From: Arenimonas fontis | Lineage (GTDB): Bacteria; Pseudomonadota; Gammaproteobacteria; Xanthomonadales; Xanthomonadaceae | NCBI RefSeq assembly: GCF_008386465.1 | Contig: NZ_VUOD01000002.1 | Coordinates: 186,001 to 250,000 of the forward strand | Direction of reading: 5' to 3' | DNA: 64,000 nt | Part shown: positions 14,101-33,263 of the stretch, piece by piece | How positions within the stretch are numbered: the stretch's first letter is position 1 | Layout of the letters: every line of letters begins with the position of its first letter | Program-made: the position numbers and the translations under genes | Notes under the pieces: generated by a model | What the model saw: the letters and a program-made list of their open reading frames with translations, nothing else | What the model was told of the DNA's origin: nothing | Database searches by the model: none

Positions 14101-14613
14101 TCAAGCCCCCTTGGCCAGGGCCAGCAGGCCACGCAGGGCGGCGGCGACGGTCTGCCGGCGCACGGCCTCGCGATCACCCTCGAAGTGGAAGACCTCGGCC
14201 CGCGGATAGCCGCCACGGCGCTTCCAGCCGATCCAGACCGTGCCCACCGGCTTGTCCGGGGTGCCACCGCCCGGGCCGGCGATGCCGGTCACCGCCACGG
14301 CGATGCTGGCACCGGAGTTCACCAGGGCGCCGGACACCATCTCCAGCACCGTCTCCCGGCTGACCGCGCCGTGTTCGGTGAGGGTTTCGGGCCGCACGCC
14401 CAGCAGGGCCTGCTTGGCCTCGTAGCTGTAAGCGGTCATGCCGCAATCGAACCAGGTCGAACTGCCCGGGATGTCGGTGATCGTCTTGGCGATCCAGCCG
14501 CCGGTGCAGCTTTCTGCCGTGGCCAGCATCTGGTTGCGGGCCTGCAGCAACCCGCCCACCTCGGCGGCCAGGGCGTGCAGGGTGTCGTCGTCGGGGATGG
14601 CGGTGGTGTCCAT
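14101..14613 (-). CDS. pncC: Nicotinamide-nucleotide amidohydrolase (CinA C-terminal domain family)
   Basis: A 170-residue single-domain CinA-C protein that deamidates NMN in pyridine nucleotide salvage; often annotated cinA. Motifs are LATAESCTGG (about 30-39), GVSRETV-like GAVSRETVLEM and AVTGIAGPGGGTPDKPVGTVWI. The start MDTTAIPDDD at 14613 is chosen because the same N-terminus, MDTAAIPDDD, recurs at the far end of the island (33161). An ATG two codons upstream is not conserved there. No good ribosome-binding site precedes it, probably because the native upstream region was displaced by the island. It lies just upstream of lexA, the usual Xanthomonas neighbour. Confidence 0.93.
   Translation of the reverse strand: MDTTAIPDDDTLHALAAEVGGLLQARNQMLATAESCTGGWIAKTITDIPGSSTWFDCGMTAYSYEAKQALLGVRPETLTEHGAVSRETVLEMVSGALVNSGASIAVAVTGIAGPGGGTPDKPVGTVWIGWKRRGGYPRAEVFHFEGDREAVRRQTVAAALRGLLALAKGA
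14568..14613. repeat. Left copy of 46-bp direct repeat (cinA codons 1-15)
   Basis: This stretch matches 33116-33161 in the same orientation at 43 of 46 positions. It covers the start codon and the first 15 codons of the intact cinA gene. Outside the repeat the two sites do not match. It probably marks the left junction of the island. Confidence 0.8.
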
Positions 14614-14689
14614 CGGCATAGGGTAGCTGCCGTCGGGGCCGGCCGCCTCCCTCGCCCGCAGCCCCCGGGGGCATGACCGGCATTGCCAG

Positions 14690-14719
14690 CCCCTGTCGTT
14701 GGCCTCAACGAAACAGGGG
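14690..14719. other. Nested stem-loop near left island end
   Basis: The inverted repeat CCCCTGT...ACAGGGG encloses a second one, CGTTG-GCCT-CAACG. It lies in the 179-bp gap between cinA and the Cas3 fragment, which otherwise shows no gene. Its function is unknown. Confidence 0.5.
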
Positions 14720-14792
14720 GTCCGTCCGTCGTCTCCGGCCAGGCAGGGCCGTTCGGCCGCCATTCTCAGCCTGTGAGACAGGGACATGCGAC

Positions 14793-15173
14793 ATGACTAC
14801 GCCATGCGCGGAGGACCTTCCGCAAACCTCCACATCAGGCACCATGAGTTCGGCCACTTCGATGCCAAGCGTTCCTTGGGGCAAATGCAGCCCAGACGGC
14901 AACTTCCACCCCTTGGTGGATCATTGCCTGGATGTCGCCATCGTCCTTCGCACCTTGCTCGACCAGGGTTCACTCGCACGCGTCGGCGCCCTGGACGCGC
15001 ACCAGAAGGATCGCCTGGCGGTCATTACATTTCTCCATGATTTCGGCAAGTGCAACTGGGGTGTGTACGGAAGGCATCCGAGGACCGATGGACGCCGCCA
15101 TCGCGCGTCCATTGGGTTTGGCTTGCTGGTGGCCACACGGGCGCCGGTGCTCTATCCATCGTGTGGTGCGTGA
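14793..15173 (+). pseudogene. Cas3 HD-nuclease N-terminal fragment
   Basis: A 126-residue frame whose residues 27-90 fit the start of a CRISPR Cas3 HD nuclease domain: WGK (29-31), FHPLVDHCLDVA (38-49) with metal-ligand histidines, and FLHDFGK (80-86) with the HD pair. This is the same motif order and spacing as the N-terminus of type I-E Cas3. Similarity stops near residue 91; the rest does not look like Cas3 in any frame, and the remaining HD domain and the whole helicase are missing. No other cas gene or repeat array is seen nearby. It is read as a broken remnant. A free-standing HD hydrolase is a less likely alternative. Confidence 0.65.
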
Positions 15174-15359
15174 CCGCTTCGGTCATCGCGGCATCGTTAA
15201 GCTGGTAGCCGCTGGGACTGCGGTGACCAGGTGTTGGATGCATGGAAGGCGGAACACACAAGCGGCCCATACTCGCAGCGGCACTTTCCCTCCGGAACCA
15301 TTGAGTCTGCACCGGCGCGTTGCCGGTGTATTCATCTGCCGTTTACATGGGTCCGTATA

Positions 15360-15365
15360 TATAAT
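15360..15365 (+). promoter_or_regulatory. Possible -10 element of copL
   Basis: A consensus TATAAT hexamer seven bases before the copL start codon. A well-spaced -35 element is not apparent, which would fit an activator-dependent promoter. Low certainty. Confidence 0.4.
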
Positions 15366-15372
15366 CGGGCGC

Positions 15373-15789
15373 ATGCCTCTGCGCGCACTCCTGATGCGGT
15401 TGTTCCTGATCGTAGCCTTGCTGGCTAACGGTCCGGGCATCGCTGGTGCGTCCATGCACATGACGGAGCACCTGAGCAACTCCCCGGGTGACGCCGCCCA
15501 CGTGACAGCGACGCAGACAGCGGCCGACTGCCACGGGGCCGGAGTGATCGCTCCGGTGACCGACGACCACCATCATCCGCAGGCCGCTGATCACACCGGG
15601 ACAGCACCACCGTTGGGCGACTGTTGTGAGACGGGCAATTGTGGTGCCTGCATGCACCACTGTTCAGCGGCAATCGCCGGGTCGGCACTCGCCGATTTCA
15701 CCGTCCGGTACCGACAAACCGTCGAACCGTTCCTGTCAGTGCACGCGTCCGCTGCACTGACCAATCTTTGCCGACCTCCGATCGGCTAA
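15373..15789 (+). CDS. copL: CopL-like copper-responsive leader protein
   Basis: A 138-residue secreted or membrane-associated protein with an N-terminal hydrophobic signal (MRLFLIVALLANGPGIAGAS) and a His/Cys-rich body (DDHHHPQAADH, GDCCETGNCGACMHHC). It resembles CopL, which in Xanthomonas precedes copA and is needed for copper-induced expression. It sits 104 bp upstream of copA. The ATG at 15373 lies eight bases after a TATAAT hexamer (15360-15365), so the transcript leader is very short. The 199 bp before it, from 15174, show nothing recognisable apart from that hexamer. Assignment rests on composition and position. Confidence 0.75.
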   Translation: MPLRALLMRLFLIVALLANGPGIAGASMHMTEHLSNSPGDAAHVTATQTAADCHGAGVIAPVTDDHHHPQAADHTGTAPPLGDCCETGNCGACMHHCSAAIAGSALADFTVRYRQTVEPFLSVHASAALTNLCRPPIG

Positions 15790-15893
15790 GTGTCGCCGCG
15801 CGCCTTTTAAGGCGCTGATGGGCCCTGTTCGCTGCTCCGCACCGACAGGGAAACGCTCGCCTCGCGAGCCCTCGTCACTCTCCCGGAGTTCCC

Positions 15894-17696
15894 ATGTCAT
15901 CCGATCTTTTCGGCCGCGCCGAGGGGCTGTCCGCCCCGTCGCGCCGCCGCTTTGTCCAAGGCCTTGCCGCCGGAGGCGCCGTTGCAGCCCTCGGCCTGTG
16001 GCCCCGCTCCAGCTGGGCCGTCAAGGCCGAAGGCGTCCCCAATGTGCTCTCGGGCACCGACTTCGACCTGACCATCGGCGAGACGCCGATGAACTTCACC
16101 GGTGCCACGCGCCCTGCGATCACGGTCAACGGATCGATCCCAGCGCCCCTACTGCGCTGGCGCGAGGGCACCACGGTCACCCTGCGGGTCCGCAATGCCC
16201 TGCCCCCCGGCTCGATCCATGGCGACCAGACGTCGATCCACTGGCACGGCATCCTGCTGCCGGCCGACATGGACGGGGTGCCCGGGCTGAGCTTCAACGG
16301 CATCAACCGCGGCGAGACCTACCAGTACCGCTTCAACGTCGTACAGGGCGGCACCTACTGGTACCACAGCCACTCCGGTTTCCAGGAGCAGGCCGGCCTC
16401 TACGGGCCGCTGGTGATCGAGCCGCTGGAGCCCGAGCCCTTCGCCTATGACCGCGATTACGTGGTCATGCTCAGCGACTGGACCGACCTCGACCCGGCGC
16501 GGTTGTTCGAGCGCCTGAAGAAGCGCTCCGACTACGACAACTACTACAAGCGCACCGTCGGCGACTTCCTCGACGACGTGCGCACGCAGGGCCTGCGCGC
16601 GACTTTGGCCGACCGCGGCATGTGGGGCCGCATGCGCATGACGCCGACCGACCTGTCGGACGTCAACGGCAACACCTACACCTACCTCATGAACGGCATG
16701 ACCTCGCTCGGCAACTGGACCGGGCTGTTCCGGTCGGGCGAGAAGGTCCGCCTCCGCTTCATCAACGGCTCCGCGATGACGTACTTCGACGTGCGGATCC
16801 CGGGGCTGAAGATGACCGTGGTCGCCGCCGACGGCCAGTACGTGCATCCGGTGACGGTGGACGAGTTCCGCATCGCCGTGGCCGAGACCTTCGACGTGAT
16901 CGTCGAACCGGCCGGGCAGGATGCGTTCACCATCTTCGCGCAGGACGCCGGGCGCACCGGCTACGTCAGCGGCACGCTGGCCGTGCGCGAAGGCCTGCGC
17001 GCGCCGGTGCCCGCGGTCGACCCGCGCCCGATCCTGACCATGGCCGACATGGGCCACGGCGGGATGGACCACGGCGGCGGCCACGCCGCGATGGATCACG
17101 CCGCGCACGGCGCCGCCGCGCAGCCCGATCCGCATGCCGGCCACGCCGCGCACCGCGGGCAAGGGCAGGGGATGCAGACGCATCCGGCCAGCGAGGCGGG
17201 TAATCCGCTGGTGGACATGCAGGCGATGACGGCGCAGCCGCGCCTGTCCGATCCGGGCGTCGGCCTGCGCGACAACGGCCGCCGCGTGCTGACCTATGCC
17301 GACCTGCGGAGCACGTTCCGCGATCCCGACGGGCGTGAACCCGGCCGCACGGTCGAGCTGCACCTGACCGGCCACATGGAGCGCTTCGCCTGGTCCTTTG
17401 ACGGAGTGAAGTTCGCTGACGCGGAGCCCCTGCGGCTGAACTATGGCGAGCGCATGCGGATCGTGCTGGTCAACGACACGATGATGTCGCACCCGATCCA
17501 CCTCCACGGCCTGTGGAGCGACCTCGAGGATGAATCCGGCAACTTCATGGTGCGCAAGCACACCATCGACATGCCGCCAGGCACCAAGCGCAGCTACCGG
17601 GTGCGCGCCGATGCGCTCGGCCGCTGGGCCTACCACTGCCACCTGCTCTACCACATGGAAGCCGGCATGTTCCGCGAAGTGCGGGTGGAGGAATGA
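15894..17696 (+). CDS. copA: Multicopper oxidase CopA
   Basis: A 600-residue periplasmic multicopper oxidase that oxidises and binds copper. A Tat signal carries SRRRF (about 16-20) before a hydrophobic stretch ending SSWAV. Cupredoxin copper motifs are all present: HWHG (116-119), WYHSH (156-160), HPIHLHG (533-539) and HCHLLYHMEAGM (581-592). A Met/His-rich insert (about 383-427: MGHGGMDHGGGHAAMDHAAHG and DPHAGHAAH) is typical of CopA/PcoA and probably binds extra copper. The stop codon overlaps the copB start (ATGA at 17693-17696), so the two are translationally coupled. Confidence 0.97.
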   Translation: MSSDLFGRAEGLSAPSRRRFVQGLAAGGAVAALGLWPRSSWAVKAEGVPNVLSGTDFDLTIGETPMNFTGATRPAITVNGSIPAPLLRWREGTTVTLRVRNALPPGSIHGDQTSIHWHGILLPADMDGVPGLSFNGINRGETYQYRFNVVQGGTYWYHSHSGFQEQAGLYGPLVIEPLEPEPFAYDRDYVVMLSDWTDLDPARLFERLKKRSDYDNYYKRTVGDFLDDVRTQGLRATLADRGMWGRMRMTPTDLSDVNGNTYTYLMNGMTSLGNWTGLFRSGEKVRLRFINGSAMTYFDVRIPGLKMTVVAADGQYVHPVTVDEFRIAVAETFDVIVEPAGQDAFTIFAQDAGRTGYVSGTLAVREGLRAPVPAVDPRPILTMADMGHGGMDHGGGHAAMDHAAHGAAAQPDPHAGHAAHRGQGQGMQTHPASEAGNPLVDMQAMTAQPRLSDPGVGLRDNGRRVLTYADLRSTFRDPDGREPGRTVELHLTGHMERFAWSFDGVKFADAEPLRLNYGERMRIVLVNDTMMSHPIHLHGLWSDLEDESGNFMVRKHTIDMPPGTKRSYRVRADALGRWAYHCHLLYHMEAGMFREVRVEE

Positions 17697-18865
17697 ACGC
17701 CATGACCCTATCCCGCCGCAACCCGCTCACCCTCGGCTTGGCCACCGCGCTGCTCCTCACTGCCGGTGTCGCGCCGGCGTGGGGCCAGGAGACAGATCAC
17801 GCCTCGCACCATCCGGCAGCGAAGCCGACTGCCGCACAGTCGCAGGCCAAGCCGGTTGACCCACGCCCCAGCGACCATGCGCACCACGCAACCCCGTCAA
17901 AGCCACCGGCGGAACCGATGGAACATGGAACGCAGGATCACGGATCCATGGACCACGGAAACATGGACCACGGCGCCATGAAACAGGGGGCGGCGGACCC
18001 TGCCGGCAGCGATCACTCCACGATGGACCATTCCTCGATGGATCACTCTGGAATGGATGGATCGAACATGGACCACTCGGGCATGGACCACGCTTCCATG
18101 GGCCACCAGGCAGGTGCCAGTCAGGATCTCCCGGCCACGGCCGAACCACACGAGCCTATTCCTGTCGTCACGCCGGCCGATCGGGCCGCGGCGTTCCCGG
18201 ACCTCGATGCGCACGTAATGCACGGCGAATCGATCAACTCCTACTGGTCGCTTGACCGGCTTGAGGCCTGGGACGCGGATGAGGACGGCACCGGCATGGC
18301 CTGGGAAGCGAAAGCCTGGGTCGGCTCCGACTTGAACCGGCTCTGGCTGCGCAGCGAGGGCGAGCGGGTGGGCGGATCCACCGAGTCGGGGGATGTGGAA
18401 GTCCTGTACGGTCGGGCCATCGCCCCCTGGTGGGACGCGGTCGCCGGTGTCCGCCATGACTTCGGTTTCGACGGCGGTCCATCGCGCACTTATGCCGCGC
18501 TCGGCGTCATCGGCCTTGCCCCGTACAAGTTTGAAGTCGAAGCGACCGCCTACGTGGGCGAGTCCGGCCAGGTCGGGCTTGGGGCGGAAGCCGAATACGA
18601 AATGCTGTTCACCAACCGGTTGATCGGCCAGTGGCTGATCGAGGGCGAAGCCTGGAGCAAGGACGATCCGGCGGTTGGAATCGGCAGCGGACTGAGCAAG
18701 GTCGAAGCCGGTTTCCGCCTGCGCTACGAGTTCCATCGGCAGTTCGCTCCCTATGTCGGCGTCGTCTGGGAGCGTGCCTACGGCGGAACCGCAGACTTCC
18801 GTCGCGCGGAGTCCGGTGATGTCGACGACACCCGTATCGTGGCGGGCGTGAGGATCTGGTTCTGA
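17693..18865 (+). CDS. copB: Copper resistance outer-membrane protein CopB
   Basis: A 390-residue protein with a signal peptide ending near APAWG. A low-complexity Met/His/Asp region (about 70-145) is built from repeated MDHG, MDHS and MDHA units. A C-terminal beta-barrel domain of about 210 residues starts near YWSLDRLEAW and ends in a terminal Phe (VRIWF), as outer-membrane proteins do. In the PcoB/CopB family the protein is in the outer membrane and works with CopA in copper sequestration. It overlaps copA by 4 bp. Confidence 0.96.
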   Translation: MNAMTLSRRNPLTLGLATALLLTAGVAPAWGQETDHASHHPAAKPTAAQSQAKPVDPRPSDHAHHATPSKPPAEPMEHGTQDHGSMDHGNMDHGAMKQGAADPAGSDHSTMDHSSMDHSGMDGSNMDHSGMDHASMGHQAGASQDLPATAEPHEPIPVVTPADRAAAFPDLDAHVMHGESINSYWSLDRLEAWDADEDGTGMAWEAKAWVGSDLNRLWLRSEGERVGGSTESGDVEVLYGRAIAPWWDAVAGVRHDFGFDGGPSRTYAALGVIGLAPYKFEVEATAYVGESGQVGLGAEAEYEMLFTNRLIGQWLIEGEAWSKDDPAVGIGSGLSKVEAGFRLRYEFHRQFAPYVGVVWERAYGGTADFRRAESGDVDDTRIVAGVRIWF

Positions 18866-18878
18866 CCGGAGTACTCGT

Positions 18879-19264
18879 ATGCAACCGAAGACTCGCAAGC
18901 GTCTCTGGCTGATCGGGGTTCCGCTGGTTGTCGTGGCCGGTACGGCGGCTTCATCTGGGGCGGCGTATACAACGTCGCCGCGGATGACATGCACACCAGG
19001 CCCGTGCACTTTGTGCTCCAGACCGCACGCGAGCACTCCATCCTGGCGCGTGCGGGAAGGTTGGACGTCCCGCCGGGCCTGGACGATCCAGCGAGAATCG
19101 TCCAGGGCGCGGGCAACTATGCGGCGATGTGCGCTGGCTGCCACCTGGCCCCGTCGATGGCCGAAACCGAGTTGAGCCAGGGCCTGTATCCCACGCCGCC
19201 GGACCTCAGTAAACACAAGGTCGACGTGGCCAAAGCGTTGATCTCCTTGGAGCCCGCGCAATGA
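18879..19264 (+). pseudogene. copM: CopM-type c-type cytochrome, frameshifted and truncated
   Basis: The gene starts at 18879 after a GGAG site with a signal/membrane segment (RLWLIGVPLVVVAG). The frame breaks at about 18942, where one base appears missing. The correct frame resumes as GGFIWGGVYNVAADD (from 18944) and continues with a haem-binding CAGCH near 19132 and GLYPTPPDLS. It then ends abruptly after DVAKALISLEPAQ, where relatives continue with the rest of the cytochrome domain. It therefore carries a 5' frameshift and a 3' loss. Position between copB and the copG-like gene fits copM of the Xanthomonas copLABMGCDF cluster. A sequencing error could explain the frameshift but not the short C-terminus. 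Confidence 0.7.
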
Positions 19265-19770
19265 ACGCAACAGCAATCTCCTTCACCCTGGCGCTGGCAC
19301 TGGCCGTCGTGTCCCCCGCAATGGCGCAGGCGACACCGTCGCACGCACATCGCCCCGCTGCCGCGCCATCTGCGGACGTCGACGTCCCAGCCACTGCAGA
19401 GGCCGCGGTCGCCGTGGCGGAACGGTTCAACACCGCCCTGTCCAGCGGCGACCTGGCCACGGTCGAAGCCTTGCTCGCTGCCGACGTTCTCATCCTCGAG
19501 TCCGGAGGTGCAGAACGCAGCCGCGAGGAATACATGGGCCATCACGCAGTCAGCGATGCGGCGTTCCTCAAGGGCGCCCATCGCCAGCTGCTCCGTCAGC
19601 GTGCACGAACCGCTGGCGAGTTCGCGTGGGTCGGAACCGAAAGCGAGCTGCACGCCCAGCAGGACGGCCAGCCACTGACCGTCCAGAGCACCGAGACGAT
19701 GGTGCTGAAGCGGACCACGGACGGCTGGCGGATCGTCCACATCCACTGGTCCTCGCGGACCAAGCGCTGA
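19261..19770 (+). CDS. Secreted NTF2-like (SnoaL/DUF4440-type) protein
   Basis: A 169-residue protein with a clear Sec signal (FTLALALAVVSPAMAQA) and an NTF2-like fold suggested by AVAVAERFNTALSSGDLATVEALLAADVLILESGG, the short EEYMGHHA motif and the closing GWRIVHIHWSSR strand. It starts within the last codons of the copM remnant (ATG at 19261). The family includes small hydrolases, isomerases and ligand-binding proteins, so the substrate cannot be told. The HIHW near the C-terminus and the His in GHH could bind metal. It lies between copM and the copG-like gene in the copper cluster; a copper role is inferred from position only. Confidence 0.75.
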   Translation: MNATAISFTLALALAVVSPAMAQATPSHAHRPAAAPSADVDVPATAEAAVAVAERFNTALSSGDLATVEALLAADVLILESGGAERSREEYMGHHAVSDAAFLKGAHRQLLRQRARTAGEFAWVGTESELHAQQDGQPLTVQSTETMVLKRTTDGWRIVHIHWSSRTKR

Positions 19771-19784
19771 CTGGAGAAGCCGAA

Positions 19785-20309: not shown

Positions 20310-20378
20310 TCCATCGGAGCAACAGGGGCGGTGTTGCGGGCGCGCCGAGTCTCGTCCGCGAGGAAGAAGGAGAACCAC

Positions 20379-20729: not shown

Positions 20730-20735
20730 TGCGTC

Positions 20736-20765
20736 GAGGATCCCACCTGAGCAGGCGGGATCCTC
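20736..20765 (+). terminator. Hairpin after the four-helix-bundle gene
   Basis: A 12-bp stem with one A-C mismatch (GAGGATCCC...GGGATCCTC) and loop TGAGCA, just past the stop codon. No T-tract follows, so it may be a processing or partial termination signal within the copper cluster. Confidence 0.5.
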
Positions 20766-20891
20766 ATCTGCAATATCAAAGCTGACCAACCGTGTTTTCG
20801 GTGACAGCCCGACATCCAACGCATGTCGGGTCCAACACAGCACGGCCCCCAACGGGGCTTAGCATCACATTCGCAATGAGGATTAATCACT

Positions 20892-21275
20892 ATGAGATCA
20901 TCAAACGTCCTTCGCTCCTTCGCGCTCGTCCTCGCGATTGCGGCTGGGCAGTTCTCCCTGCAGATCGCGCACGCCCACGCCGCGCTGCAGCAGTCCACAC
21001 CGGCGGCAAATGCGGTGGTGGCCTCGCCAGACCAGATCGATCTCGTGTTCAACGAAACATTGATTCCGCGGGCGTCGCGTCTCAAGTTGCTCATGAAGCA
21101 CGGCAGTTCCACCATGCCGATCGAGAATTTCACGACCGAGATCGTCAACAACGGCAAGACCCTGCGTGCCAAGTTGCCCCAGCCGCTGGCTCCGGGCGTC
21201 TATACCGTGGAATACCGCGCCGTTGGTGGCGACAACCACCCCATGACGGGCAGTTTCAGCTTCACGGTGCGCTGA
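20892..21275 (+). CDS. copC: Periplasmic copper-binding protein CopC
   Basis: A 127-residue protein with a signal peptide (LRSFALVLAIAAGQFSLQIAHA) followed by a mature start of His-Ala, the conserved N-terminal copper ligand. It has the CopC/YobA beta-sandwich pattern: P-A-A-N-A-V-V-A-S-P at the start, L-V-F-N-E, and YRAVGGDNHPMTGSFSFTV at the end with the second His ligand. Binds Cu(II) in the periplasm and is thought to hand it to CopD. It lies 10 bp upstream of copD. Confidence 0.95.
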   Translation: MRSSNVLRSFALVLAIAAGQFSLQIAHAHAALQQSTPAANAVVASPDQIDLVFNETLIPRASRLKLLMKHGSSTMPIENFTTEIVNNGKTLRAKLPQPLAPGVYTVEYRAVGGDNHPMTGSFSFTVR

Positions 21276-21285
21276 GGAGCCACAA

Positions 21286-22215
21286 ATGCTCGACCTGTCG
21301 GCTTATGCAGTGAGGTTCCTGGAATACCTAGTCCTCATGGTTCTTTTCGGGGTCCCATTGCTCGGGTGGTACGGTTCGCGTCGAGCGGCACTCACCGATG
21401 CCCTGGCCGGATGGCCACTTATGGGCATTCTATTGGCAAGTGCCGCTGTCGGTATCGTGCTCACCGGCGCCGATGTGGTCTTCAAGACCGCGGGCATCAT
21501 GGGGATGCCGCTTGCCGACGTTGATCGCGCATCGCTTGGCTGGTATCTGCTCGAGACGTCCGCGGGCCGGGCAGCGATGGCGAGAGGCGCGCTGCTGCTC
21601 GCCCTGATGTTTGTGCTTGGATGGCATCGTCGCCGCGGGAAGGTGGAGCCCGCCTTCCCGCTGGCGGTGACGCTGGCGGGCGGCGCACTCGCTTCTCTGG
21701 CATGGAACGGCCACGCGGCCGCTGGTGAGGGCGTGGCAGGCGCGGTCCGGCTTGCTGCGGGCCTTGTCCATCTTCTTGCGGCAGGCGGCTGGATCGCAGC
21801 GGTCCTGATGTTCCTGGGGATGCTCCTGCGCGGCAAGGAGGCCTCCGGCAGCGGGCGTCTGCGATCAACGCATGACTTTCTGCATGGATTTTCGACGCTG
21901 GGAACGATTTTCGTTGCTGCGCTCGTCGTGTCCGGCATCGTGCACTACGGGGATCTCACCGCGTGGTCGTTTTCGGCCCTGTTTCAGAGCACCTACGGGA
22001 AGTTGCTGCTGTTCAAACTGGCTCTGTTCGGCGGAATGCTGGGTTTGGGAGCGCTGCACCGATGGACGCTGGTGCCGCGCCTGGGACGGGCGCTGACCAG
22101 CGGAGATCCCGCGCAGGAGGTGCGGGCTTTGCGGCAGAGTGTTACGGCTGAGGCCGCGCTGGCCATCTTGATCCTGGTTGTTGTTTCAGTGCTCGGGACG
22201 CTCAGCCCCGAATAG
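21286..22215 (+). CDS. copD: Copper transport membrane protein CopD
   Basis: A 309-residue inner-membrane protein with about eight hydrophobic segments (for example [20 protein letters not shown] and [15 protein letters not shown]) and the CopD-domain C-terminal half with [12 protein letters not shown] and [24 protein letters not shown]. It pairs with CopC and in the family is linked to copper uptake across the inner membrane. It lies 10 bp after copC. The next gene starts 62 bp downstream. Confidence 0.93.
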
Positions 22216-22276
22216 CTGTGTAACCCCCAATGGCACACTGCCTTGGCAGTCCATCCCCACTAAAGCGAGCATCGGC

Positions 22277-24696
<2,420 letters not shown>

Positions 24697-24700
<4 letters not shown>

Positions 24701-24744
24701 CTTGAGTCAATTGCATCGGTCCTGGTAAGAGATAAGCTCAAGTC
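24697..24744. promoter_or_regulatory. Dyad-symmetric site between copF and the cus genes
   Basis: Arms GACTTGAG (24699-24706) and CTCAAGTC (24737-24744) form a perfect 8-bp inverted repeat 30 bp apart. The left arm lies within a smaller palindrome TTGACT-TG-AGTCAA (24697-24710) that contains a -35-like TTGACT. The element spans the whole copF-24745 gap and touches both the copF stop and the next start codon. A regulator site is inferred; no regulator gene lies in the island. Confidence 0.5.
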
Positions 24745-25167: not shown

Positions 25168-25296
25168 TGCCCGGACGCTGACTGCTCCGCACCTCTGTGC
25201 GGCGCGGTCCTGTGCGTTCGCGCCGTGGCTGCGTCACGGCATGTGTTCCTGCCCTCGTCCGAGCGACCTGCGTCGCGTCGGCCCAAGGACACTGAT

Positions 25297-26619
25297 ATGG
25301 CATCCCTGTTCGACCCGATGCAGGCCAGGCGCCTGCACCCTTACCCGCTGTTCCGCCGTCGGCCACTGCTCCGGCACCTGCTTGCCTGCGTGTTCGCCGG
25401 CGGCTTGTGGACGCTGGCGCTGCCCGCGACCGCCACCGAACCCATCCCGGGGCACAGCCTCGAGTCGATCCGCACCTGGGTTCTGGAACACAACCCCGAG
25501 CTGCGGGCCATGGACTTCGAAACCCAGGCCGCCGAAGCGAGGATCCTTCCCGCAGGTGCCCTGCCCGATCCGATGGCCTCGGTTGGATTCCGCGGCCTCG
25601 ATCCGGACAAGCCCTGGCGCACCGCCGGTGCCGAGCGCGAGGTGAACTACGCGCTGCGCCAGCGCTTCCCGCTCTGGGGCAAGCGTTCGCTGGCCCGCGA
25701 GGTCGCCACCCATGAGGCCGAGGCGATGCGGCTGGAGCGCGAAGCCACCGCGCGCACGCTGCTCGCCGAGGCCGAAGCCGCCTACGTCCGCTACTGGCAC
25801 GCCGACCAAGCGGTGGCGGTGCTCGACCGCCGCATCGCCCTGCTCCGCCAGGTCGAGGAAATAGCCGGCGTGCGCTACGCCCTGGGTCGCGCGGCGCAGC
25901 AGGATGCCATCCGCGCCCAGGTCGAGCAGACCAGCCTACAGCGCGAGCGGATCGAACGCCTCGCGACCAAGCAGGAGGCGGCCGCCACCTTGAACGCGGT
26001 GCTGGGGCGCCGGTCCGATGCACCGCTGGCGACTCCCGGCGAGGCGCCGCGCCTCGCCGTCCACAGCGCCTCGCTTGCCGAGGTACTGGATGACGCCGAT
26101 GCGCATCCCGCGGTGCGCTCGCAGCAGGCCCGCGCCGAGGCGGCGCGCACGAACGTGGTGCTGCAGCGTCGCAACCGCTTTCCGGACATCACCCTGGGCG
26201 TGGGCGCGATGCAGCTCGGCAACGGTATCGAGAGCACCGAACTGATGCTCGAGGTCGAGATCCCGTTCCAGCAGCGCGCCCGCCGCGAACGCGAGCGCGA
26301 ATCGCGCCTGCTCGAAGAAGCAGCGCTCGCCCGCAGGGACGCCACGCTGCGGGCCGTGGAGGAACGCGGCGCCTCTGCCTGGGCGCAGTGGACCAGCGCA
26401 CGCGAACGTCGCGAGCTGATCGAGAACACGCTGCTGCCGCAGGCCGACGCCACCTGGCAATCCGCCCTGGCCAGCTACCAGGTCGGCGAAGTCGACTTCG
26501 GAACGCTGCTGGAAGCACTCAATGAATGGCAGGGCGCCGACCTCGCACGGGTCGATGCACTGCGTGACGAACTGTTGGGCGCCGCCGCCGTGCGCGCCAT
26601 CGAAGGAGAGATCCGATGA
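25297..26619 (+). CDS. cusC: Outer-membrane channel of metal efflux system (CusC/CzcC, TolC family)
   Basis: A 440-residue TolC-family protein that forms the outer-membrane duct of the tripartite pump. A signal region (LLRHLLACVFAGGLWTLALPATA) is followed by two structural repeats of long alpha-helices with OEP-family patterns (LVLEHNPELRAMDFE-like at 60-75, QRFPLWGKRSLAREV, LLEALNEWQ near the end). The start at 25297 is preferred over an upstream frame start at 25225 because it is nearer the signal peptide. The stop overlaps the next gene (ATGA, 26616-26619), so the three efflux genes form one operon. Confidence 0.92.
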   Translation: MASLFDPMQARRLHPYPLFRRRPLLRHLLACVFAGGLWTLALPATATEPIPGHSLESIRTWVLEHNPELRAMDFETQAAEARILPAGALPDPMASVGFRGLDPDKPWRTAGAEREVNYALRQRFPLWGKRSLAREVATHEAEAMRLEREATARTLLAEAEAAYVRYWHADQAVAVLDRRIALLRQVEEIAGVRYALGRAAQQDAIRAQVEQTSLQRERIERLATKQEAAATLNAVLGRRSDAPLATPGEAPRLAVHSASLAEVLDDADAHPAVRSQQARAEAARTNVVLQRRNRFPDITLGVGAMQLGNGIESTELMLEVEIPFQQRARRERERESRLLEEAALARRDATLRAVEERGASAWAQWTSARERRELIENTLLPQADATWQSALASYQVGEVDFGTLLEALNEWQGADLARVDALRDELLGAAAVRAIEGEIR

Positions 26620-28163
26620 CCCGTGTCCAGACCCTGTCGCTCGCCATCGGCGTCGCACTCGCCGCCCTCGCCGTCGGCTGGATGGCCGGCCGCGCGACGA
26701 ACGATGCTCCGAGCGCAGCCACGTCCGCCGAAGCGCCGGCCGCGGAACGCAAGGTGCTCTATTACCGCAATCCCATGGGCCTTCCGGACACCTCGCCGGT
26801 GCCGAAGAAGGACCCGATGGGAATGGACTACATCCCCGTCTACGAAGGCGAGGAGGCCACCGCACCCGGCACCGTCGTGCTGACGCCGGAGAAGGTGCAG
26901 ACGCTCGGTGTGCGCACGGCGGTGGTGGAACGCGCGCCGCTGGCCGCCGGGGTGCGCGCCAGCGCCACGCTGGAGATCGACGAGACCCGGCAGTACGCGA
27001 TCGCACCGCGTTTCGAAGGCTGGATCGAGCGCCTGTACGCCGACCAGACCGGCATGCGCGTGCGCCGCGGCCAGCCGCTGATGCGCGTGTACAGCCCGGA
27101 GCTGATGGCGGCGCAGCAGGAGTACCGCGTCGCCGATGCGGCGGCGCGCAAGCTCGCGCAGAGCGATCCGGTCAGCGCCGCCTCGATGACGCGCCTGCGC
27201 GATGCGGCGGTGGCCCGCCTGCGCAACTGGCAGATCGCCCCGCGCCAGCTCGGACAGGGCGACGGCAGCTTCGTGCTGACCTCGCCGGCGGACGCGGTGG
27301 TGATCGAGAAGCCGGTCGTGCAGGGCGCGCGCTTCGAGCCGGGCGAGACCGTGCTGCGGCTGGCGGACCTGTCCACGGTGTGGGCGGTGGCGCACGTGCC
27401 AGCCGCGCAGGCGGCGGAGCTGCGGGTCGGACAGGCCGCGCGTTTCGAATCCACCACCCTGCCCGGCCGTCGCTTCGACGGCACGGTGACGTTCGTGCAG
27501 CCGGTGCTGGACACCGCCACGCGCACGGTGCAGGTGCGGGTGGCGCTGCCGAATCGGGACGGCGTGCTGCGTCCCGGCCTGTTCGGCGCGATCGTGCTGG
27601 AGCGCGACGACCCGACGCCGGTGCTGAGCGTGCCGCGCTCGGCGGTGCTCGACAGCGGACTGCGCCAGGTGGTGCTGGTCGAGCGCGCGCCCGGCCGGTT
27701 CGAGCCGCGCGAGGTGCGCACCGGGCGGCGCGCCGGCGATCGCGTCGAGATCCTGGAAGGCGTGCGCGAAGGCGAACGCGTGGTGGTGGCGGCGAACTTC
27801 CTGATCGACGCCGAGAGCAACCTGCAGGCGGCGTTGCAGGGACTGGGCGCGCACGCCGGCCACGGTGGGTCCGCACCCGCCGCACAGGCGACCGCGCCCG
27901 CGGCGGTGGACCACGCCGGACATGGGCCGGCGATGCCACCGGTCGATACGAAGAAGGACACGCAGCCGGCCCCGGCCACGCCGCGACCGACGCCGCAGGC
28001 GCCCGCGCAGCCGTCGCCGGCGCCGGCCGACCCGCACGCGGGCCACGCCCCGACCGCGTCGCCCGATCCGCACGCCGGGCACGCCCCGCCCCCGCCATCC
28101 GATCCGCACGCCGGCCACGCGCCGGCAACCGACGGCACGCACGACGGCCAGGAGGACCGCTGA
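26616..28163 (+). CDS. cusB: Periplasmic adaptor of Cu/Ag efflux system (CusB-like)
   Basis: A 515-residue membrane fusion protein linking the RND pump to the outer-membrane channel. An N-terminal membrane anchor (LAIGVALAALAVGWMAG) leads to a heavy-metal-binding segment (YYRNPMGLPDTSPVPKKDPMGMDYIP, about 47-72), then barrel-sandwich and beta-barrel domains. The last 100 residues are an unusual Pro/Ala/His-rich tail ending in three 12-residue repeats of DPHAGHAP (472-507). It overlaps cusC by 4 bp and ends 1 bp before cusA. The tail is not part of the ordinary CusB fold and may bind extra metal. Confidence 0.94.
   Translation: MTRVQTLSLAIGVALAALAVGWMAGRATNDAPSAATSAEAPAAERKVLYYRNPMGLPDTSPVPKKDPMGMDYIPVYEGEEATAPGTVVLTPEKVQTLGVRTAVVERAPLAAGVRASATLEIDETRQYAIAPRFEGWIERLYADQTGMRVRRGQPLMRVYSPELMAAQQEYRVADAAARKLAQSDPVSAASMTRLRDAAVARLRNWQIAPRQLGQGDGSFVLTSPADAVVIEKPVVQGARFEPGETVLRLADLSTVWAVAHVPAAQAAELRVGQAARFESTTLPGRRFDGTVTFVQPVLDTATRTVQVRVALPNRDGVLRPGLFGAIVLERDDPTPVLSVPRSAVLDSGLRQVVLVERAPGRFEPREVRTGRRAGDRVEILEGVREGERVVVAANFLIDAESNLQAALQGLGAHAGHGGSAPAAQATAPAAVDHAGHGPAMPPVDTKKDTQPAPATPRPTPQAPAQPSPAPADPHAGHAPTASPDPHAGHAPPPPSDPHAGHAPATDGTHDGQEDR
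28029..28136 (+). repeat. Three 36-bp tandem repeats in cusB
   Basis: Three imperfect copies of 36 bp, each encoding DPHAGHAP plus four variable residues (TASP, PPPS, ATDG). They give the CusB C-terminus three evenly spaced HxxH pairs. A related DPHAGHA unit occurs in CopA (near base 17127). Confidence 0.85.
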
Positions 28164-28164
28164 C

Positions 28165-31100
28165 ATGCTCGGCCGCATCATCGAGTGGTCGGTCCGCAAC
28201 GTCTTCCTGATCGCGGTGATGACGCTGGCGGTGATCGCCGGCGGCGTCTACACGCTGCTGCGCACTCCGCTGGACGCGCAGCCGGATCTGTCCGACGTGC
28301 AGGTGATCGTGCTCACCGAGTATCCGGGGCAGGCGCCGCAGGTAGTCGAGGACCAGGTCACCTACCCGCTCACCAGCGCGCTGCTGTCGGTGCCGAAGTC
28401 GAAGGTGGTGCGCGGTTTCTCGTTCTTCGGCGCCTCGTTCGTCTACGTGATCTTCGAGGACGGCACCGACCTCTACTGGGCGCGCTCGCGCGTGCTCGAA
28501 TACCTCAACTTCGCCTCGAAGAACCTGCCGGCCGGCGTCACCCCGAGCCTCGGGCCGGATGCCACCGGCGTCGGCTGGGTCTACCAGTACGTGCTGCAGA
28601 GCGACCGCCACTCGCTGGACGAGCTGCGCACGATGCAGGACTGGTATGTGCGCTACCAGCTCGCCAAGGCGCCGGGCGTGGCGGAGATCGCCAGCGTCGG
28701 CGGTTTCGTGCGCCAGTATTCGGTCACCGTCGATCCGGCGCGCCTGCGCGAGTACGGCATCCCGCTGGCGCGCGTGTCGCAGGTGGTGCGCGAGAGCAAC
28801 CGCGATGTCGGCGGCCGCGTGGTCGAGATGGCCGAGACCGAATACATGGTGCGCGGCCGCGGCTACCTGCGTGGCGTGGAGGATATCGAGAACCTGGTGC
28901 TGAAGGCGGAGGGCGGCGCGCCGGTGCGCGTCGGCGACGTCGCCCACGTCGAACTGGTGCCGGACGAGCGCCGCGGCCTGGCCGAGCTCGACGGCGAAGG
29001 CGAGACGGTCGCCGGCATCGCGGTGGCGCGCTACGGCGAAAACGCGCTGGCGGTGATCCACGGCCTGAAGGAGAAGCTGGCCGAGATCCGCGGCGGCCTG
29101 CCCGCGGGCATCAGCCTGCGCACGGTGTACGACCGCTCCGAGCTGATCCACCGCGCGATTGCGACCCTGCGCACCACGCTGATCGAGGAGAGCCTGATCG
29201 TCGCGCTGGTCTGCCTGGTATTCCTGTTCCACGCCCGCAGCGCGCTGGTGGCGATCGTGATGCTGCCGGTCGGCGTGCTGATCGCGTTCATCGCCATGCG
29301 CGTGCTCGGACTCAACAGCAACATCATGAGCCTGGGCGGCATCGCCATCGCCATCGGCGCAATGGTGGACGCGGCGATCGTGATGATCGAGAACGCGCAC
29401 AAGCACATCGAGCGCGACGACGGCACGCGCAGCCGCGCGCAACTGATCATCGACGCCTGCCGCGAGGTCGGCCCGGCGCTGTTCTTCAGCCTGATGATCA
29501 TCACCGTCTCGTTCCTGCCGGTGTTCGCGCTGGAGGCGCAGGAAGGACGGCTGTTCCGGCCGCTGGCGTTCACCAAGACCTTCGCGATGGCCGGCGGCGC
29601 GCTGCTGTCGATCACGCTGGTGCCGGTGCTGATGCTGCTGTTCGTGCGCGGCCGGATCGTGCCGGAGGCGAAGAACCCGGTGAACCGCGTGCTGATCGCC
29701 GGCTACCGCCCGGTGATCAACGCGGTGCTGCGCCACAGGCTCGCCACCCTCGTGCTGGCGGTGGTCGCGCCGCTGGCCACGCTGTGGCCGGCATCGCGCC
29801 TGGGCAGCGAGTTCATGCCGACGCTCAACGAAGGCACCCTGCTCTACATGCCGGCCTCGCTGCCGGCGATGTCGGCGACCAAGGCGGCGCAACTGCTGCA
29901 ACAGCAGGACCGCATCATCAGGAGCTTCCCCGAGGTCGAATCGGTGTTCGGCAAGGCCGGACGCGCCAACACCGCCACCGACCCCGCGCCGCTGGAGATG
30001 TTCGAGACCGTCATCAACCTCAAGCCCGAATCCGAATGGCGCGAGGGGATGACGGTGGACAAACTGATCGCCGAAATGGACCGCGCGCTGAGTTTCCCCG
30101 GCGTCGCCAACTCCTGGACCATGCCGATCAAGGCGCGCACCGACATGCTGGCCACCGGCATCCGCACGCCGGTCGGCATCAAGGTGTTCGGCCGCGACCT
30201 GGCGCAGATGGAGACGCTGGCGCGGCAGATCGAGGCGGCGGTGCGCAAGGTGCCGGGCACCACCAGCGCTTACGCCGAGCGGCTCACCGGCGGCTACTAT
30301 CTCGACGTCGAACCCGACCGCGCGCGGCTGGCGCAGTACGGCGTCACGCCCGGCGAGCTGCAGGACGTGGTGGCGGCCGCGCTGGGCGGCGAGATGGTGA
30401 CCACGCTGGTGCAGGGACGCGAGCGCTTCGGGCTGATCGTGCGCTACCCGCGCGAGCTGCGCGACGATCCGCAGCGCATCGCCGACAACGTGCTGGTGCC
30501 GACCATGGACGGCGCGCAGGTGCCGCTGGGCGAACTGGCCACGGTGGTGGTGCGCAAGGGTGCGCCCAGCATCCGGACCGAGAACGCGATGCTGTCGGCC
30601 TACATCTACGTCGACACCCGCGAGAGCGACATCGGCCGCTACGTGCGCGCCGCGCAGCAGGCGGTGGCCGAGTCGGTGAAGTTCCCGCCCGGCACGTACG
30701 CCACCTGGAGCGGGCAGTACGAGTACATGCAGCGCGCCGCGGCGAAGATGCGGATCGTGGTGCCGGTGACGCTGGCGCTGATCTTCCTGCTGCTGTACCT
30801 CAACTTCCGGCGCGTCACCGAATCGCTGATCGTGATGCTGTCGGTGCCGTTCGCGCTGGTGGGCGGCGTCTGGCTGATGTGGGCGCTCGACTACAACCTC
30901 AGCGTGGCGGTGGCGGTCGGCTTCATCGCACTGGCCGGCGTCGCCGCGGAAACCGGCGTGGTGATGCTGATCTATCTCGACCACGCGCTGGAAGCTCGCG
31001 CCGCGCAGCGCCAGGCCGAAGGCCGCTCGCTGGATGCCGGCGATCTGCGCGACGCGATCATCGAAGGCGCGGTCGACCGCGTGCGCCCGAAGATGATGAC

Positions 31101-31317
31101 CGTGGTCGCGATCATGGCCGGCCTGCTGCCGATCATGTGGAGCAGCGGCACAGGCTCGGAAGTCATGCGCCGCATCGCCGCGCCGATGGTGGGCGGCATG
31201 GTGTCGTCGACGGTGCTGACGCTGGTGGTGATCCCGGCACTGTACTCGTTGATCAAGCAGCGGCAGCTGGCCAGGAAGCGGCCAATGGCTGCTGCGCTGC
31301 CGGCGGACGTGTCGTGA
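28165..31317 (+). CDS. cusA: Heavy-metal RND efflux pump (CusA family)
   Basis: A 1050-residue proton-driven pump of the HME-RND family. Family features include the N-terminal membrane segment after MLGRIIEWSVRNVFLI, two large periplasmic loops, and the proton-relay region AIAIGAMVDAAIVMIENAHKHIE (about 392-414). Twelve membrane segments can be counted, and the C-terminal half repeats the fold (SVAVAVGFIALAGVAAETGVVM). The start at 28165 has GGAGG ahead and follows cusB by one base. Methionines such as those in RTDMLATGIRTPVG match the CusA-type (Cu/Ag) loop rather than CzcA. The copper context supports Cu(I)/Ag(I) as substrate. Confidence 0.95.
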   Translation: MLGRIIEWSVRNVFLIAVMTLAVIAGGVYTLLRTPLDAQPDLSDVQVIVLTEYPGQAPQVVEDQVTYPLTSALLSVPKSKVVRGFSFFGASFVYVIFEDGTDLYWARSRVLEYLNFASKNLPAGVTPSLGPDATGVGWVYQYVLQSDRHSLDELRTMQDWYVRYQLAKAPGVAEIASVGGFVRQYSVTVDPARLREYGIPLARVSQVVRESNRDVGGRVVEMAETEYMVRGRGYLRGVEDIENLVLKAEGGAPVRVGDVAHVELVPDERRGLAELDGEGETVAGIAVARYGENALAVIHGLKEKLAEIRGGLPAGISLRTVYDRSELIHRAIATLRTTLIEESLIVALVCLVFLFHARSALVAIVMLPVGVLIAFIAMRVLGLNSNIMSLGGIAIAIGAMVDAAIVMIENAHKHIERDDGTRSRAQLIIDACREVGPALFFSLMIITVSFLPVFALEAQEGRLFRPLAFTKTFAMAGGALLSITLVPVLMLLFVRGRIVPEAKNPVNRVLIAGYRPVINAVLRHRLATLVLAVVAPLATLWPASRLGSEFMPTLNEGTLLYMPASLPAMSATKAAQLLQQQDRIIRSFPEVESVFGKAGRANTATDPAPLEMFETVINLKPESEWREGMTVDKLIAEMDRALSFPGVANSWTMPIKARTDMLATGIRTPVGIKVFGRDLAQMETLARQIEAAVRKVPGTTSAYAERLTGGYYLDVEPDRARLAQYGVTPGELQDVVAAALGGEMVTTLVQGRERFGLIVRYPRELRDDPQRIADNVLVPTMDGAQVPLGELATVVVRKGAPSIRTENAMLSAYIYVDTRESDIGRYVRAAQQAVAESVKFPPGTYATWSGQYEYMQRAAAKMRIVVPVTLALIFLLLYLNFRRVTESLIVMLSVPFALVGGVWLMWALDYNLSVAVAVGFIALAGVAAETGVVMLIYLDHALEARAAQRQAEGRSLDAGDLRDAIIEGAVDRVRPKMMTVVAIMAGLLPIMWSSGTGSEVMRRIAAPMVGGMVSSTVLTLVVIPALYSLIKQRQLARKRPMAAALPADVS

Positions 31318-31379
31318 TGTGGCCGACCTTCAACGCGCCAGGGCAAAGGCGGTCCGCGTGTGCGTTGACCCAAGCTTTA

Positions 31380-32704
31380 GCAGCTTGTTGAAATTCTCCC
31401 GCGCCAGAGCTTGCTTTCAAGCCCTCTGTTTGCGATATCGACCTCAGCCATAGTGGAGGGCGTGGGATGCGCGGTGCAGACGTCACTCAGGAATCGTTGT
31501 TCACGGTCGCCAAGCTCGCCGACTTCGTCCCGGCGAACCATCCGCTCCGATCCATTCGGGAGCTGGCCGATGAGGCGCTCAGGCGCATGAGCGGCCTGTT
31601 TTCGGCGCTGTACGCCGATACCGGCCGCGCCTCCATCGCGCCGGAGAAACTGATGCGGGCGCAGCTGCTGCAGCTGTTCTACTCGATCCGGAGCGAGCGG
31701 ATGCTGATGGAGCAGCTCCACTACAACCTGCTGTTCCGCTGGTTCGTCGGTATCGCGATCGACGAGCCGGTCTGGGATCACTCCGTGTTCTCGAAGAACC
31801 GGGATCGTTTGAACGGAAACGAGGTGGCGAGCGAGTTTCTGGCCGAGGTGGTGCGGTTGGCGGAAAAGCGGGGCCTGATGTCGGACGAGCATTTCTCGGT
31901 CGACGGCACGCTGCTGCAGGCGTGGGCCTCGTACAAGAGCTTCCGTCCCAAGGATGGGACGCCGAAGGACCCACCGGGTGGTGGGCATCGCAACGCCCAG
32001 CCTGATTTCAAGGGTCAGAAGCGTCGCAACGAAACGCACGAATCGGCCAGCGATCCGGACGCCAGGCTTTACCGCAAGGGCAATACCGGGGCGCAGCTGA
32101 GCTACCAGGCCCATGTGCTCATGGAGCATCGCAGCGGCCTGGTGCGTGCAGCGTGTGTCACGCAGGCCAGCGGCCATGGTGAGCGTGACGCGGCGTTGGC
32201 GATGCTTGGTTCGCTGCGCGGCCGACGACGGCGCACGCTGGCCGCGGACAAGGGGTACGACACGGCGGACTTCGTCGCGGGCTGTCGGGCCATGGGTATC
32301 ACCCCGCACGTTGCGCAGAACACCTCGCACCGCCGCAGCGCCATCGATGGCCGCACTACCCGACACGCCGGGTATGCGATCAGCCTGCGGACGCGCGCCT
32401 GGATCGAAACGCACTTCGGATGGCTCAAGGCGGCTGCCGGAATGCGTCAGGTCAAGCAGCGCGGCCTTACGAAGGTCGAGGTGCTGTTTCAGCTGGCGAT
32501 GGCGGCGAGCAACCTCGTCCGCCTGCCGAAGCTGATCGCCGCGGGGGCCGCGTGATGGCGGCCCCGGCGGGGAAGGTGCGCCTGGAAGTCCGAAAGCGGG
32601 CTTGTTTCAGAGCGCGGGACGCGCTTGCGGAGCGCTTGAGCAGCGAGAAATCCGCGCTGCCGACCGAGTCGGGGGCTTCGCCGGGTCGAATTTCAACAGG
32701 CTGA
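31380..32704 (+). mobile_element. IS5-like insertion sequence
   Basis: The terminal inverted repeats share CAGC(T/C)TGTTGAAATTC: left end at 31381-31396, right end at 32688-32703 (reverse complement). The element carries one transposase gene and sits 60 bp past the cusA stop codon. TAG flanks the outer side on the left and recurs one base out on the right, a possible target duplication. Exact ends are uncertain by a few bases. Confidence 0.75.
31467..32555 (+). CDS. IS5-family DDE transposase
   Basis: A 362-residue transposase of the IS5/IS1182-like type. The N-terminal domain begins with the typical LADFVPANHPLRSIRELADEAL. The catalytic acidic residues are in FSVDGTLLQAW (first Asp), ADKGYDTADF (second Asp) and TRAWIETHFGWLK (Glu), so the active site is intact and the gene appears functional. 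Terminal inverted repeats lie on both sides. The reading frame is unbroken, suggesting a more recent arrival than the decayed fragment to its right. Confidence 0.93.
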   Translation: MRGADVTQESLFTVAKLADFVPANHPLRSIRELADEALRRMSGLFSALYADTGRASIAPEKLMRAQLLQLFYSIRSERMLMEQLHYNLLFRWFVGIAIDEPVWDHSVFSKNRDRLNGNEVASEFLAEVVRLAEKRGLMSDEHFSVDGTLLQAWASYKSFRPKDGTPKDPPGGGHRNAQPDFKGQKRRNETHESASDPDARLYRKGNTGAQLSYQAHVLMEHRSGLVRAACVTQASGHGERDAALAMLGSLRGRRRRTLAADKGYDTADFVAGCRAMGITPHVAQNTSHRRSAIDGRTTRHAGYAISLRTRAWIETHFGWLKAAAGMRQVKQRGLTKVEVLFQLAMAASNLVRLPKLIAAGAA

Positions 32705-32719
32705 TAGGGGCCGCTTCGC

Positions 32720-33060
32720 CTTCAGTCGGTTGGGCGACGCCGAAGCTGAATTCTTGTTGGAGATATTGCTCGAGGGCATCGCCAAAAGTCTCCCGCAAGT
32801 GCTTCTCGGTGGCGGGGTCGAGCGCCATCCTCGCACCGTCCTCGCTGCCGGTCAACGCAGCCGCGCCGATCGCCCGGCCGCCGCTGGTTTCAATGTGGCC
32901 TCGCAGGCGTGCCAGGGTGCCCCGAGCGCGACGGCGTCGTCCACGATCAGTCAATCGCCAGGCTCGACCTTGCCATCGAACGCCGGCTGGAAGGCTAGGC
33001 GGTGGAAGGCACCGGCTCCCCCGCGTACGCGGTGATCAACCGATCTGGTGACGACGCTGC
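32720..33060 (-). pseudogene. Phosphoribosyltransferase-like domain remnant
   Basis: Read on the minus strand, three pieces in different frames line up as one protein: RGGAGAFHRLAFQPAFDGKVEPGD (about 33032-32957), a stop codon, then LIVDDAVALG (about 32955-32926), a one-base shift, and GTLARLRGHIETSGGRAIGAAALTG (from about 32924), continuing to QEFSFGVAQPTEGEA. VDDAVALGGT is the PRPP-binding loop pattern of phosphoribosyltransferases. Such domains occur inside large proteins of conjugative and phage-like elements. At least two lesions show it is decayed. It lies between the insertion sequence and the right-hand cinA repeat. Confidence 0.6.
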
Positions 33061-33115
33061 CGATGCTGGCGGTGTTCGAGCGGGGCGCGGACGGCGTCTG
33101 TGGCGTGACTAGGTG

Positions 33116-33161
33116 CCAGGGCGTGCAGAGTGTCGTCGTCGGGGATGGCAGCGGTGTCCAT
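33116..33161. repeat. Right copy of 46-bp direct repeat (cinA 5' end)
   Basis: This repeats 14568-14613 with three mismatches. Read on the minus strand it gives MDTAAIPDDDTLHALA, the CinA N-terminus, and then runs into unrelated sequence. The bases to its right (33162-33207) are therefore likely to be the native cinA upstream region. No gene is seen between it and the blaI promoter. Confidence 0.8.
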
Positions 33162-33262: not shown

Positions 33263-33263
33263 C

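What the first reader, a model, noticed from the sequence alone, without database searches (positions are those of the whole stretch)
14568..33161. Copper island flanked by a direct repeat of the cinA 5' end
46 bp covering the start and first 15 codons of cinA occur again at 33116-33161 in the same orientation (43/46 identical), and the 18.5 kb between them is entirely accessory. The intact cinA lies outside the left copy; the right copy is an orphan start. This is what site-specific integration into the 5' end of a gene, with rebuilding of the gene, would leave. The three differences suggest that the element brought its own version of the target from another strain. cinA is not a well-known integration site to my knowledge.
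Basis: partly seen in the sequence, partly recalled or inferred. Interest (0 to 1): 0.75.

Follow-up and report, generated by a model that had tools for sequence, protein, structure and literature searches.

The report
Decayed insertion at the cinA start
A patchwork of foreign DNA, including a copper-resistance cluster that also sits elsewhere in other bacteria, lies at the very start of the gene cinA; the gene kept a complete start and an orphan copy of that start was left on the far side, but no machinery for precise insertion was found, so this looks like an old, layered event at an unusual spot.

Summary
A 47-bp repeat (44/47) carries the first 15 codons of cinA at 14567-14613 and 33115-33161. 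In the genus, cinA lies beside blaI or mutS, and the right copy with its upstream DNA is the native cinA-blaI junction. The foreign DNA therefore sits between the native upstream region and the cinA gene, and cinA kept an ATG, its frame and a cinA-type -10 box.

The label "copper island flanked by the repeat" needs changing. The copper cluster has its own left end, at 15060, which recurs to the base in Pseudoxanthomonas taiwanensis and Luteimonas huabeiensis beside unrelated DNA; here it sits inside a truncated cas3. To its right come an IS5-family element without matching target duplications and a frameshifted piece of a phage-like polyvalent gene that probably runs into cinA codon 15.

Site-specific integration is possible but not shown. 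No integrase was found among the ORFs scanned, none of nine family genomes with 14-85 kb cinA-mutS gaps has a second cinA start, and no convincing attP turned up. The three differences need no foreign donor. Elements that supply a new start and promoter are known for the neighbouring mutS. Probably a decayed, over-written insertion of that kind; homology-driven or illegitimate recombination is the close rival.

The parts
14101..14613 (-). intact cinA (CinA/PncC domain), starting in the left copy of the repeat
   Evidence: PF02464 E 2.9e-58, TIGR00199; 75-88% identity to near full-length cinA of 23 other genus members, plus one partial match
14567..14613 (-). left copy of the 47-bp repeat: ATG and first 15 codons of cinA
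14614..14792 (.). non-native DNA upstream of the intact cinA; last ~40 bp carry a cinA-type -10 box (TACCCT at -12)
   Evidence: the sigma-70 scan finds no promoter here or at the native copy
14793..15059 (+). N-terminal HD-domain fragment (89 aa) of a cas3 gene, cut off at the copper unit
   Evidence: PF18019 E 6.5e-11 on 14673-15173; 57-58% identity to open frames of 868-896 aa in G035, G153, G437
15060..15060 (.). left end of the copper unit, shared to the base with P. taiwanensis and L. huabeiensis beside unrelated DNA
15430..15789 (+). copL-family regulator
   Evidence: NF033807
15894..18865 (+). copA (multicopper oxidase) and copB
   Evidence: PF07732/PF07731/PF00394, PF05275
18879..20729 (+). 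small ORFs: unassigned, SnoaL-like, DUF411, DUF326
20892..24700 (+). copC, copD and P-type ATPase
   Evidence: PF04234, PF05425, PF00122 with YHS and HMBD domains
25225..31317 (+). cusCBA-type efflux (OEP, HlyD_D23, ACR_tran)
   Evidence: 15060-31263 is 96.6-97.3% identical to P. taiwanensis DNA in three pieces
31381..32703 (+). IS5-family insertion sequence, flanked by TTAG/ATAG instead of CTAG/CTAG
   Evidence: NF033581 E 4.8e-82; ends and flanks; one match in the genome
32704..33114 (-). frameshifted fragment of a phage-like large polyvalent gene (phosphoribosyltransferase-like by eye)
   Evidence: phrog_22413 E 3.1e-11; 49-60% aa to L147 in pieces; L147 protein has LPD39, ART-PolyVal, InPase. 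Similarity is clear to about 33016 in DNA and 33067 in protein, weak from there to the joint
33115..33161 (-). right copy of the repeat: orphan cinA start
33162..33263 (.). native cinA-blaI intergenic region
   Evidence: aligned with genus relatives
33264..34749 (+). blaI-type repressor and M56/TonB BlaR1-type gene, native neighbours
   Evidence: PF03965, PF05569, PF03544; same order in nine genus relatives

Best explanation
Foreign DNA entered at the start of cinA, between the native cinA-blaI upstream region and the gene, and brought a piece ending in a cinA start with a usable-looking -10 box, so the gene kept start, frame and a promoter candidate while the native start was left behind as an orphan. 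The entry was most likely the site-specific insertion of a phage- or island-like element that supplies its target's start, as known for mutS; its integrase and much of its body are gone. Later, or already on the donor, a separately mobile copper unit inserted into a cas3 gene, and an IS5-family element was involved in losing the middle, leaving cas3 and polyvalent-gene fragments at the two edges. Shown: the repeat, the native junction, the shared copper left end, the fragments, the odd IS flanks. Inferred: order of events, site-specificity, use of the new promoter.
For: Repeat 44/47. In 24 other genus loci the nearest recognised neighbour upstream of cinA is blaI (9), blaR (1) or mutS (12); 2 could not be judged. 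Right copy upstream matches genus cinA-blaI DNA from -90 to -13 (score 36.5 against a null maximum of 2.2 +/- 2.9; 0 of 400 shuffles; 16 of the 24 loci used). Left copy: the coding part is 94% like the right copy but the 40 bp upstream only 68% (null 62 +/- 4%); the other two pairs with at least 94% coding identity keep 95-97% upstream, which suggests a junction at the ATG; TANNCT at -12 as in relatives. The edges are fragments of a cas3 and of a phage-like gene. Precedent: elements at the mutS start that supply a new start and promoter (PMC5296598, passages), and prophages between mutS and cinA in Pseudomonas (PMC2647930, passages).
Against: No integrase in the 18 island ORFs scanned or the further ones. 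The right copy probably abuts the interior of a polyvalent gene, not an intergenic attachment arm. 0 of 9 tested long-gap family loci have a second cinA start. No convincing phage or plasmid carrier among the rows listed (10 of 122 and 15 of 69 records), no viral contig with the shared 20-mer. The three closest cas3 relatives have no cinA start upstream, only matches of 12-17 bp at chance level. The left upstream 40 bp resembles one relative's cinA leader (L013, 0 of 400 shuffles reach it) and -90..-13 weakly resembles L007 (2 of 400), which fits a donor cinA leader instead.
Confidence: 0.45

Rival explanations
1. Homologous recombination at one end and illegitimate joining at the other: DNA from a relative that already had foreign DNA upstream of its cinA recombined within cinA/lexA on the left and was joined end to end into codon 15 of the native cinA on the right. 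The repeat is what remained of the native start.
For: The right joint probably lies inside a polyvalent gene; no integrase found; left leader resembles a cinA leader of another species over 40 bp. Such one-ended events are described (PMC3240628, start of abstract in the search listing).
Against: The two coding copies are 94% identical but the upstream 40 bp only 68%, unlike the other two pairs with at least 94% coding identity.
Confidence: 0.27
2. Break repair with fill-in or capture: foreign fragments were joined into a break at the cinA start and the 47 bp were duplicated as the ends were filled.
For: Mosaic of unrelated fragments; repeat bounded on both sides; all three differences are transitions.
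Against: The repeat edge coincides with the ATG and the inserted DNA supplies a cinA-type -10 box at the right distance, which would be luck.
Confidence: 0.15
3. The copper unit itself targeted cinA and the repeat is its attachment site.
Against: The unit's left end is at 15060, 446 bp from the repeat, and is identical in two other genera beside other DNA.
Confidence: 0.03

Closest known systems
Mobile elements at the start of mutS (Vibrio splendidus 12B01, E. coli 536, Burkholderia multivorans CF2, Pseudomonas putida F1; PMC5296598, passages read)
   Same: Insertion at the start of a gene of the same neighbourhood; native start displaced; new start and promoter supplied; repeat-like ends.
   Different: Those carry a putative integrase and excise; here the target is cinA, no integrase was found and excision is untested.
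Prophages and tailocin clusters between mutS and cinA in Pseudomonas (PMC2647930, passages read)
   Same: Foreign, phage-like DNA in the mutS-cinA interval.
   Different: In the passages read they lie between the genes and no duplicated cinA start is mentioned; here no tail genes were seen.
Copper-resistance islands and plasmids of Xanthomonas (PMC11651105, passages read; plasmid hits)
   Same: Similar cop genes (best plasmid hit 90.0% identity over 35% of the region); in one chromosomal island a phage-like gene at one end; mobile.
   Different: One of those islands is an ICE near a tRNA-Leu gene with 17-bp repeats, another sits near an AraC-type regulator gene; here the cluster sits in a cas3 fragment at cinA.
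SXT/R391 elements in the 5' part of prfC (recalled; search listing only)
   Same: Integration into the 5' end of a gene which the element completes (recalled).
   Different: Known integrase and attachment core (recalled); no shared genes tested.

Membership tests
Site-specifically integrated element at a gene's 5' end (mutS-start / prfC type) | Direct repeats at both ends, one restoring the gene's start | tested here: met
   47-bp repeat; intact cinA frame and ATG
Site-specifically integrated element at a gene's 5' end (mutS-start / prfC type) | Empty site in relatives joins the two flanks | tested here: met
   9 genus members with cinA next to blaI; eight measured gaps 102-118 bp, window 102 bp. 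Other species, not strains of the same one
Site-specifically integrated element at a gene's 5' end (mutS-start / prfC type) | Integrase gene in the element | tested here: not met
   Only an IS5-family transposase found in the ORFs scanned; it may have been lost
Site-specifically integrated element at a gene's 5' end (mutS-start / prfC type) | Same site used by related elements elsewhere | tested here: inconclusive
   0 of 9 long-gap family loci tested; most genomes were not tested
Site-specifically integrated element at a gene's 5' end (mutS-start / prfC type) | Excision and a circular form | not testable with these tools
   needs PCR or reads
Mobile copper-resistance cluster (copLAB-CDF plus cus) | Same cluster at unrelated places in other genera with a fixed end | tested here: met
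   Left end at 15060 in three genera; right end not determined
IS5-family element | Transposase family, terminal repeats, target duplication | tested here: inconclusive
   NF033581 and terminal repeats met; duplication absent: TTAG/ATAG against CTAG at the 7 other right ends and 2 other left ends seen
Type I CRISPR-Cas locus | Complete cas3 | tested here: not met
   Only 89 aa at the N-terminus remain; no other Cas3_HD match in the genome. Other cas genes were not searched

The most novel reading that the evidence does not exclude
The start of cinA is a genuine integrase target used by a family of phage- or island-like elements that carry a replacement cinA start and promoter, placing a gene of the recA-lexA-mutS neighbourhood under element control, as known for mutS; the copper unit here only over-wrote one such element.
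Probability: 0.3. Interest if true: 0.5.

Novelty: new member of a known kind. Interest (0 to 1): 0.32.

Why it matters
If the cinA start is a real integration site, it would be a second gene start in the mutS-cinA-lexA-recA neighbourhood used by elements that take over a gene's start and promoter. The case also warns that flanking repeats need not bound the cargo between them: here the copper cluster has its own end and history.

Tried and rejected
Chance repeat: rejected (44/47 against 30/47 for the next best). Assembly artefact through the IS: unlikely, one match in the genome. Repeat as the end of the copper unit: rejected. Recurrent cinA-start insertion in the family: I picked by hand the nine genomes with cinA-mutS distances of about 14-85 kb on one contig; none has a second cinA start. 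Not tested: gaps of about 10 kb or less, genomes with the two genes hundreds of kb apart, and those with them on different contigs. In two of the nine (G106, G071), 10 ORFs were scanned: 4 hit a TonB receptor, an ABC-2 transporter, and DUF11 or DUF11/OmpA proteins, 6 hit nothing at E <= 1e-8, none an integrase; one further ORF was left out. Relatives of the polyvalent fragment: no viral contigs, plasmids or phages; of the cas3 fragment: no viral contigs or plasmids. The 33-bp match at 14623-14655 shared with many family genomes and the 23-32 bp matches near 33055-33095 were left as unexplained, probably composition-driven. Searches scored two candidates per genome, so absence there is weak. 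Element class of the copper unit: no inverted copy of its left end with fewer than 3 mismatches in 15, left open. Dropped before counts: eight genus loci (L020-L027) were never put into the leader comparison; of the 16 that were, five whose aligned start is not ATG are left out of the pair table but stay; L018 and L027 could not be judged in the neighbour count; L016 was not among the eight measured gaps.
Full report
Place. The window is G000:C12:186001-250000 of a 2.63-Mb genome in 32 contigs. G158, of the same family, has a contig C69 of 48,631 bases, the length of the Pseudoxanthomonas taiwanensis DSM 22914 record NZ_PDWK01000017.1 with the same copper DNA; I take them to be the same. That species is in Lysobacteraceae in the taxonomy (the older name Xanthomonadaceae is recalled). 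The window's genus is not named by the tools.

Repeat. 14567-14613 and 33115-33161 match at 44 of 47, the two places reported in the genome. The gene is CinA/PncC; its domain match begins at residue 14, and the first residues vary between species, so the repeat lies in a tolerant stretch.

Native side. Of 27 genus genomes 25 have a cinA match. Besides the window's own, 24 loci were read: 9 have blaI next to cinA, 1 has blaR, 12 have mutS (in one, L019, several hundred bases away), 2 could not be judged. Eight measured cinA-blaI gaps are 102-118 bp; from the right copy to blaI it is 102 bp. The right copy's upstream DNA aligns with the relatives' from -90 to -13 (score 36.5; none of 400 shuffles; 16 loci).

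Left side. Upstream of the intact cinA there is no such similarity in -60..-13 (287 of 400 shuffles do as well); in -40..-1 it resembles relatives, best L013 (0 of 400), seemingly through a TACCCT box at -12; in -90..-13 there is a weak match to L007 (2 of 400). A TANNCT box at -12 or -13 is present in all 11 of the 16 relatives whose start aligns as ATG. The plain sigma-70 scan found no promoter at either copy, so the box is a resemblance, not proof of activity. Among 13 sequences compared, three pairs share at least 94% of the 47 coding bases; the two species pairs keep 95-97% in the 40 bp upstream, the left/right pair 68% (null 62 +/- 4%). With only two pairs for comparison this is suggestive, not firm.

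The three differences. All three are transitions; at positions 12 and 33 the right copy's T is in none of 11 relatives, position 10 cannot be polarised. Decay of the orphan copy is enough; another strain's version is not required and not excluded.

What lies between. From left: an 89-aa HD fragment of cas3 (PF18019; 57-58% to open frames in three of 348 order genomes); the copper unit from 15060 with copL, copA, copB, small ORFs, copC, copD, a P-type ATPase and cusCBA; an IS5-family element at 31381-32703; a frameshifted fragment of a phage-like polyvalent gene; then the orphan start. The similarity to the polyvalent gene is clear to about 33067 and weak over the last 50 bp before the orphan start, so that the gene runs right up to it is probable, not certain. 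The other IS copies seen have CTAG at 7 right ends and 2 left ends; here the flanks read TTAG and ATAG, so it does not sit in a clean insertion, which suggests that material beside it was lost.

Copper unit. P. taiwanensis DNA is 96.6-97.3% identical over 15060-31263 in three pieces. Among 395 family genomes searched with 14614-15880 (two candidates scored in each), only this one besides the window matches from 15060; 17 more match from about 15317 on. An exact 24-mer from the left end occurs in two records of the genome collection, P. taiwanensis and Luteimonas huabeiensis HB2 (the window's own record may be left out by the tool). In all three the similarity starts at the same base with unrelated DNA before it. 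So the copper unit has its own end and lies in cas3 here. Its right end is not known; L. huabeiensis matches to 31336 at 88%.

Is cinA a hot spot? In a 149-genome family sample I chose by hand the nine genomes with cinA-mutS distances of about 14-85 kb on one contig; none has a second cinA start. Short, weak matches to the left edge were found among phages and plasmids (122 and 69 records; 10 and 15 listed, none of these annotated as cinA), and no viral contig has the shared 20-mer. The three closest cas3 relatives have no cinA start upstream. Recurrence is thus not seen, but the sample is small.

Mechanism. An element that inserts at a gene's start and supplies a new one is known at mutS, with excision seen by PCR (PMC5296598, passages), and foreign DNA between mutS and cinA is known in Pseudomonas (PMC2647930, passages). 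This fits the anatomy, above all that homology stops at the ATG and a -10 box follows at the right distance. Against it stand the missing integrase and the right joint, which probably lies inside the polyvalent gene. I put it at 0.45, one-ended recombination with donor DNA at 0.27, break repair at 0.15. Three paper searches on islands or prophages at cinA (2 of 2, 10 of 16 and 15 of 21 papers listed) gave the Pseudomonas cases, the mutS element and many unrelated papers; in these listings and the passages read I saw no report of integration into the cinA start.

Noticed in passing
33264-34749: A blaI/blaR1-type pair with a TonB-like C-terminus sits between cinA and mutS; of 22 other genus loci that could be judged, 10 have blaI or blaR beside cinA and 12 have mutS instead.
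   Followed up: partly
33162-33263 and relatives: A TANNCT box 12-13 bp before the cinA ATG in all 11 relatives with an aligned ATG suggests a very short or leaderless cinA transcript.
   Followed up: partly
L143 and window 15060-31263: About 97% DNA identity of a 16-kb copper cluster between two genera; P. taiwanensis has extra stretches within it and further ORFs beyond cusA that look porin- and cytochrome-like by eye.
   Followed up: partly
15088-15112: A short inverted repeat (ATGGACGC ... GCGTCCAT) lies near the left end of the copper unit; its meaning is open.
   Followed up: no
7419-8448: Seven tRNA genes in a row, usual integration targets (recalled), lie about 6 kb from cinA, yet the insertion is at cinA.
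   Followed up: no
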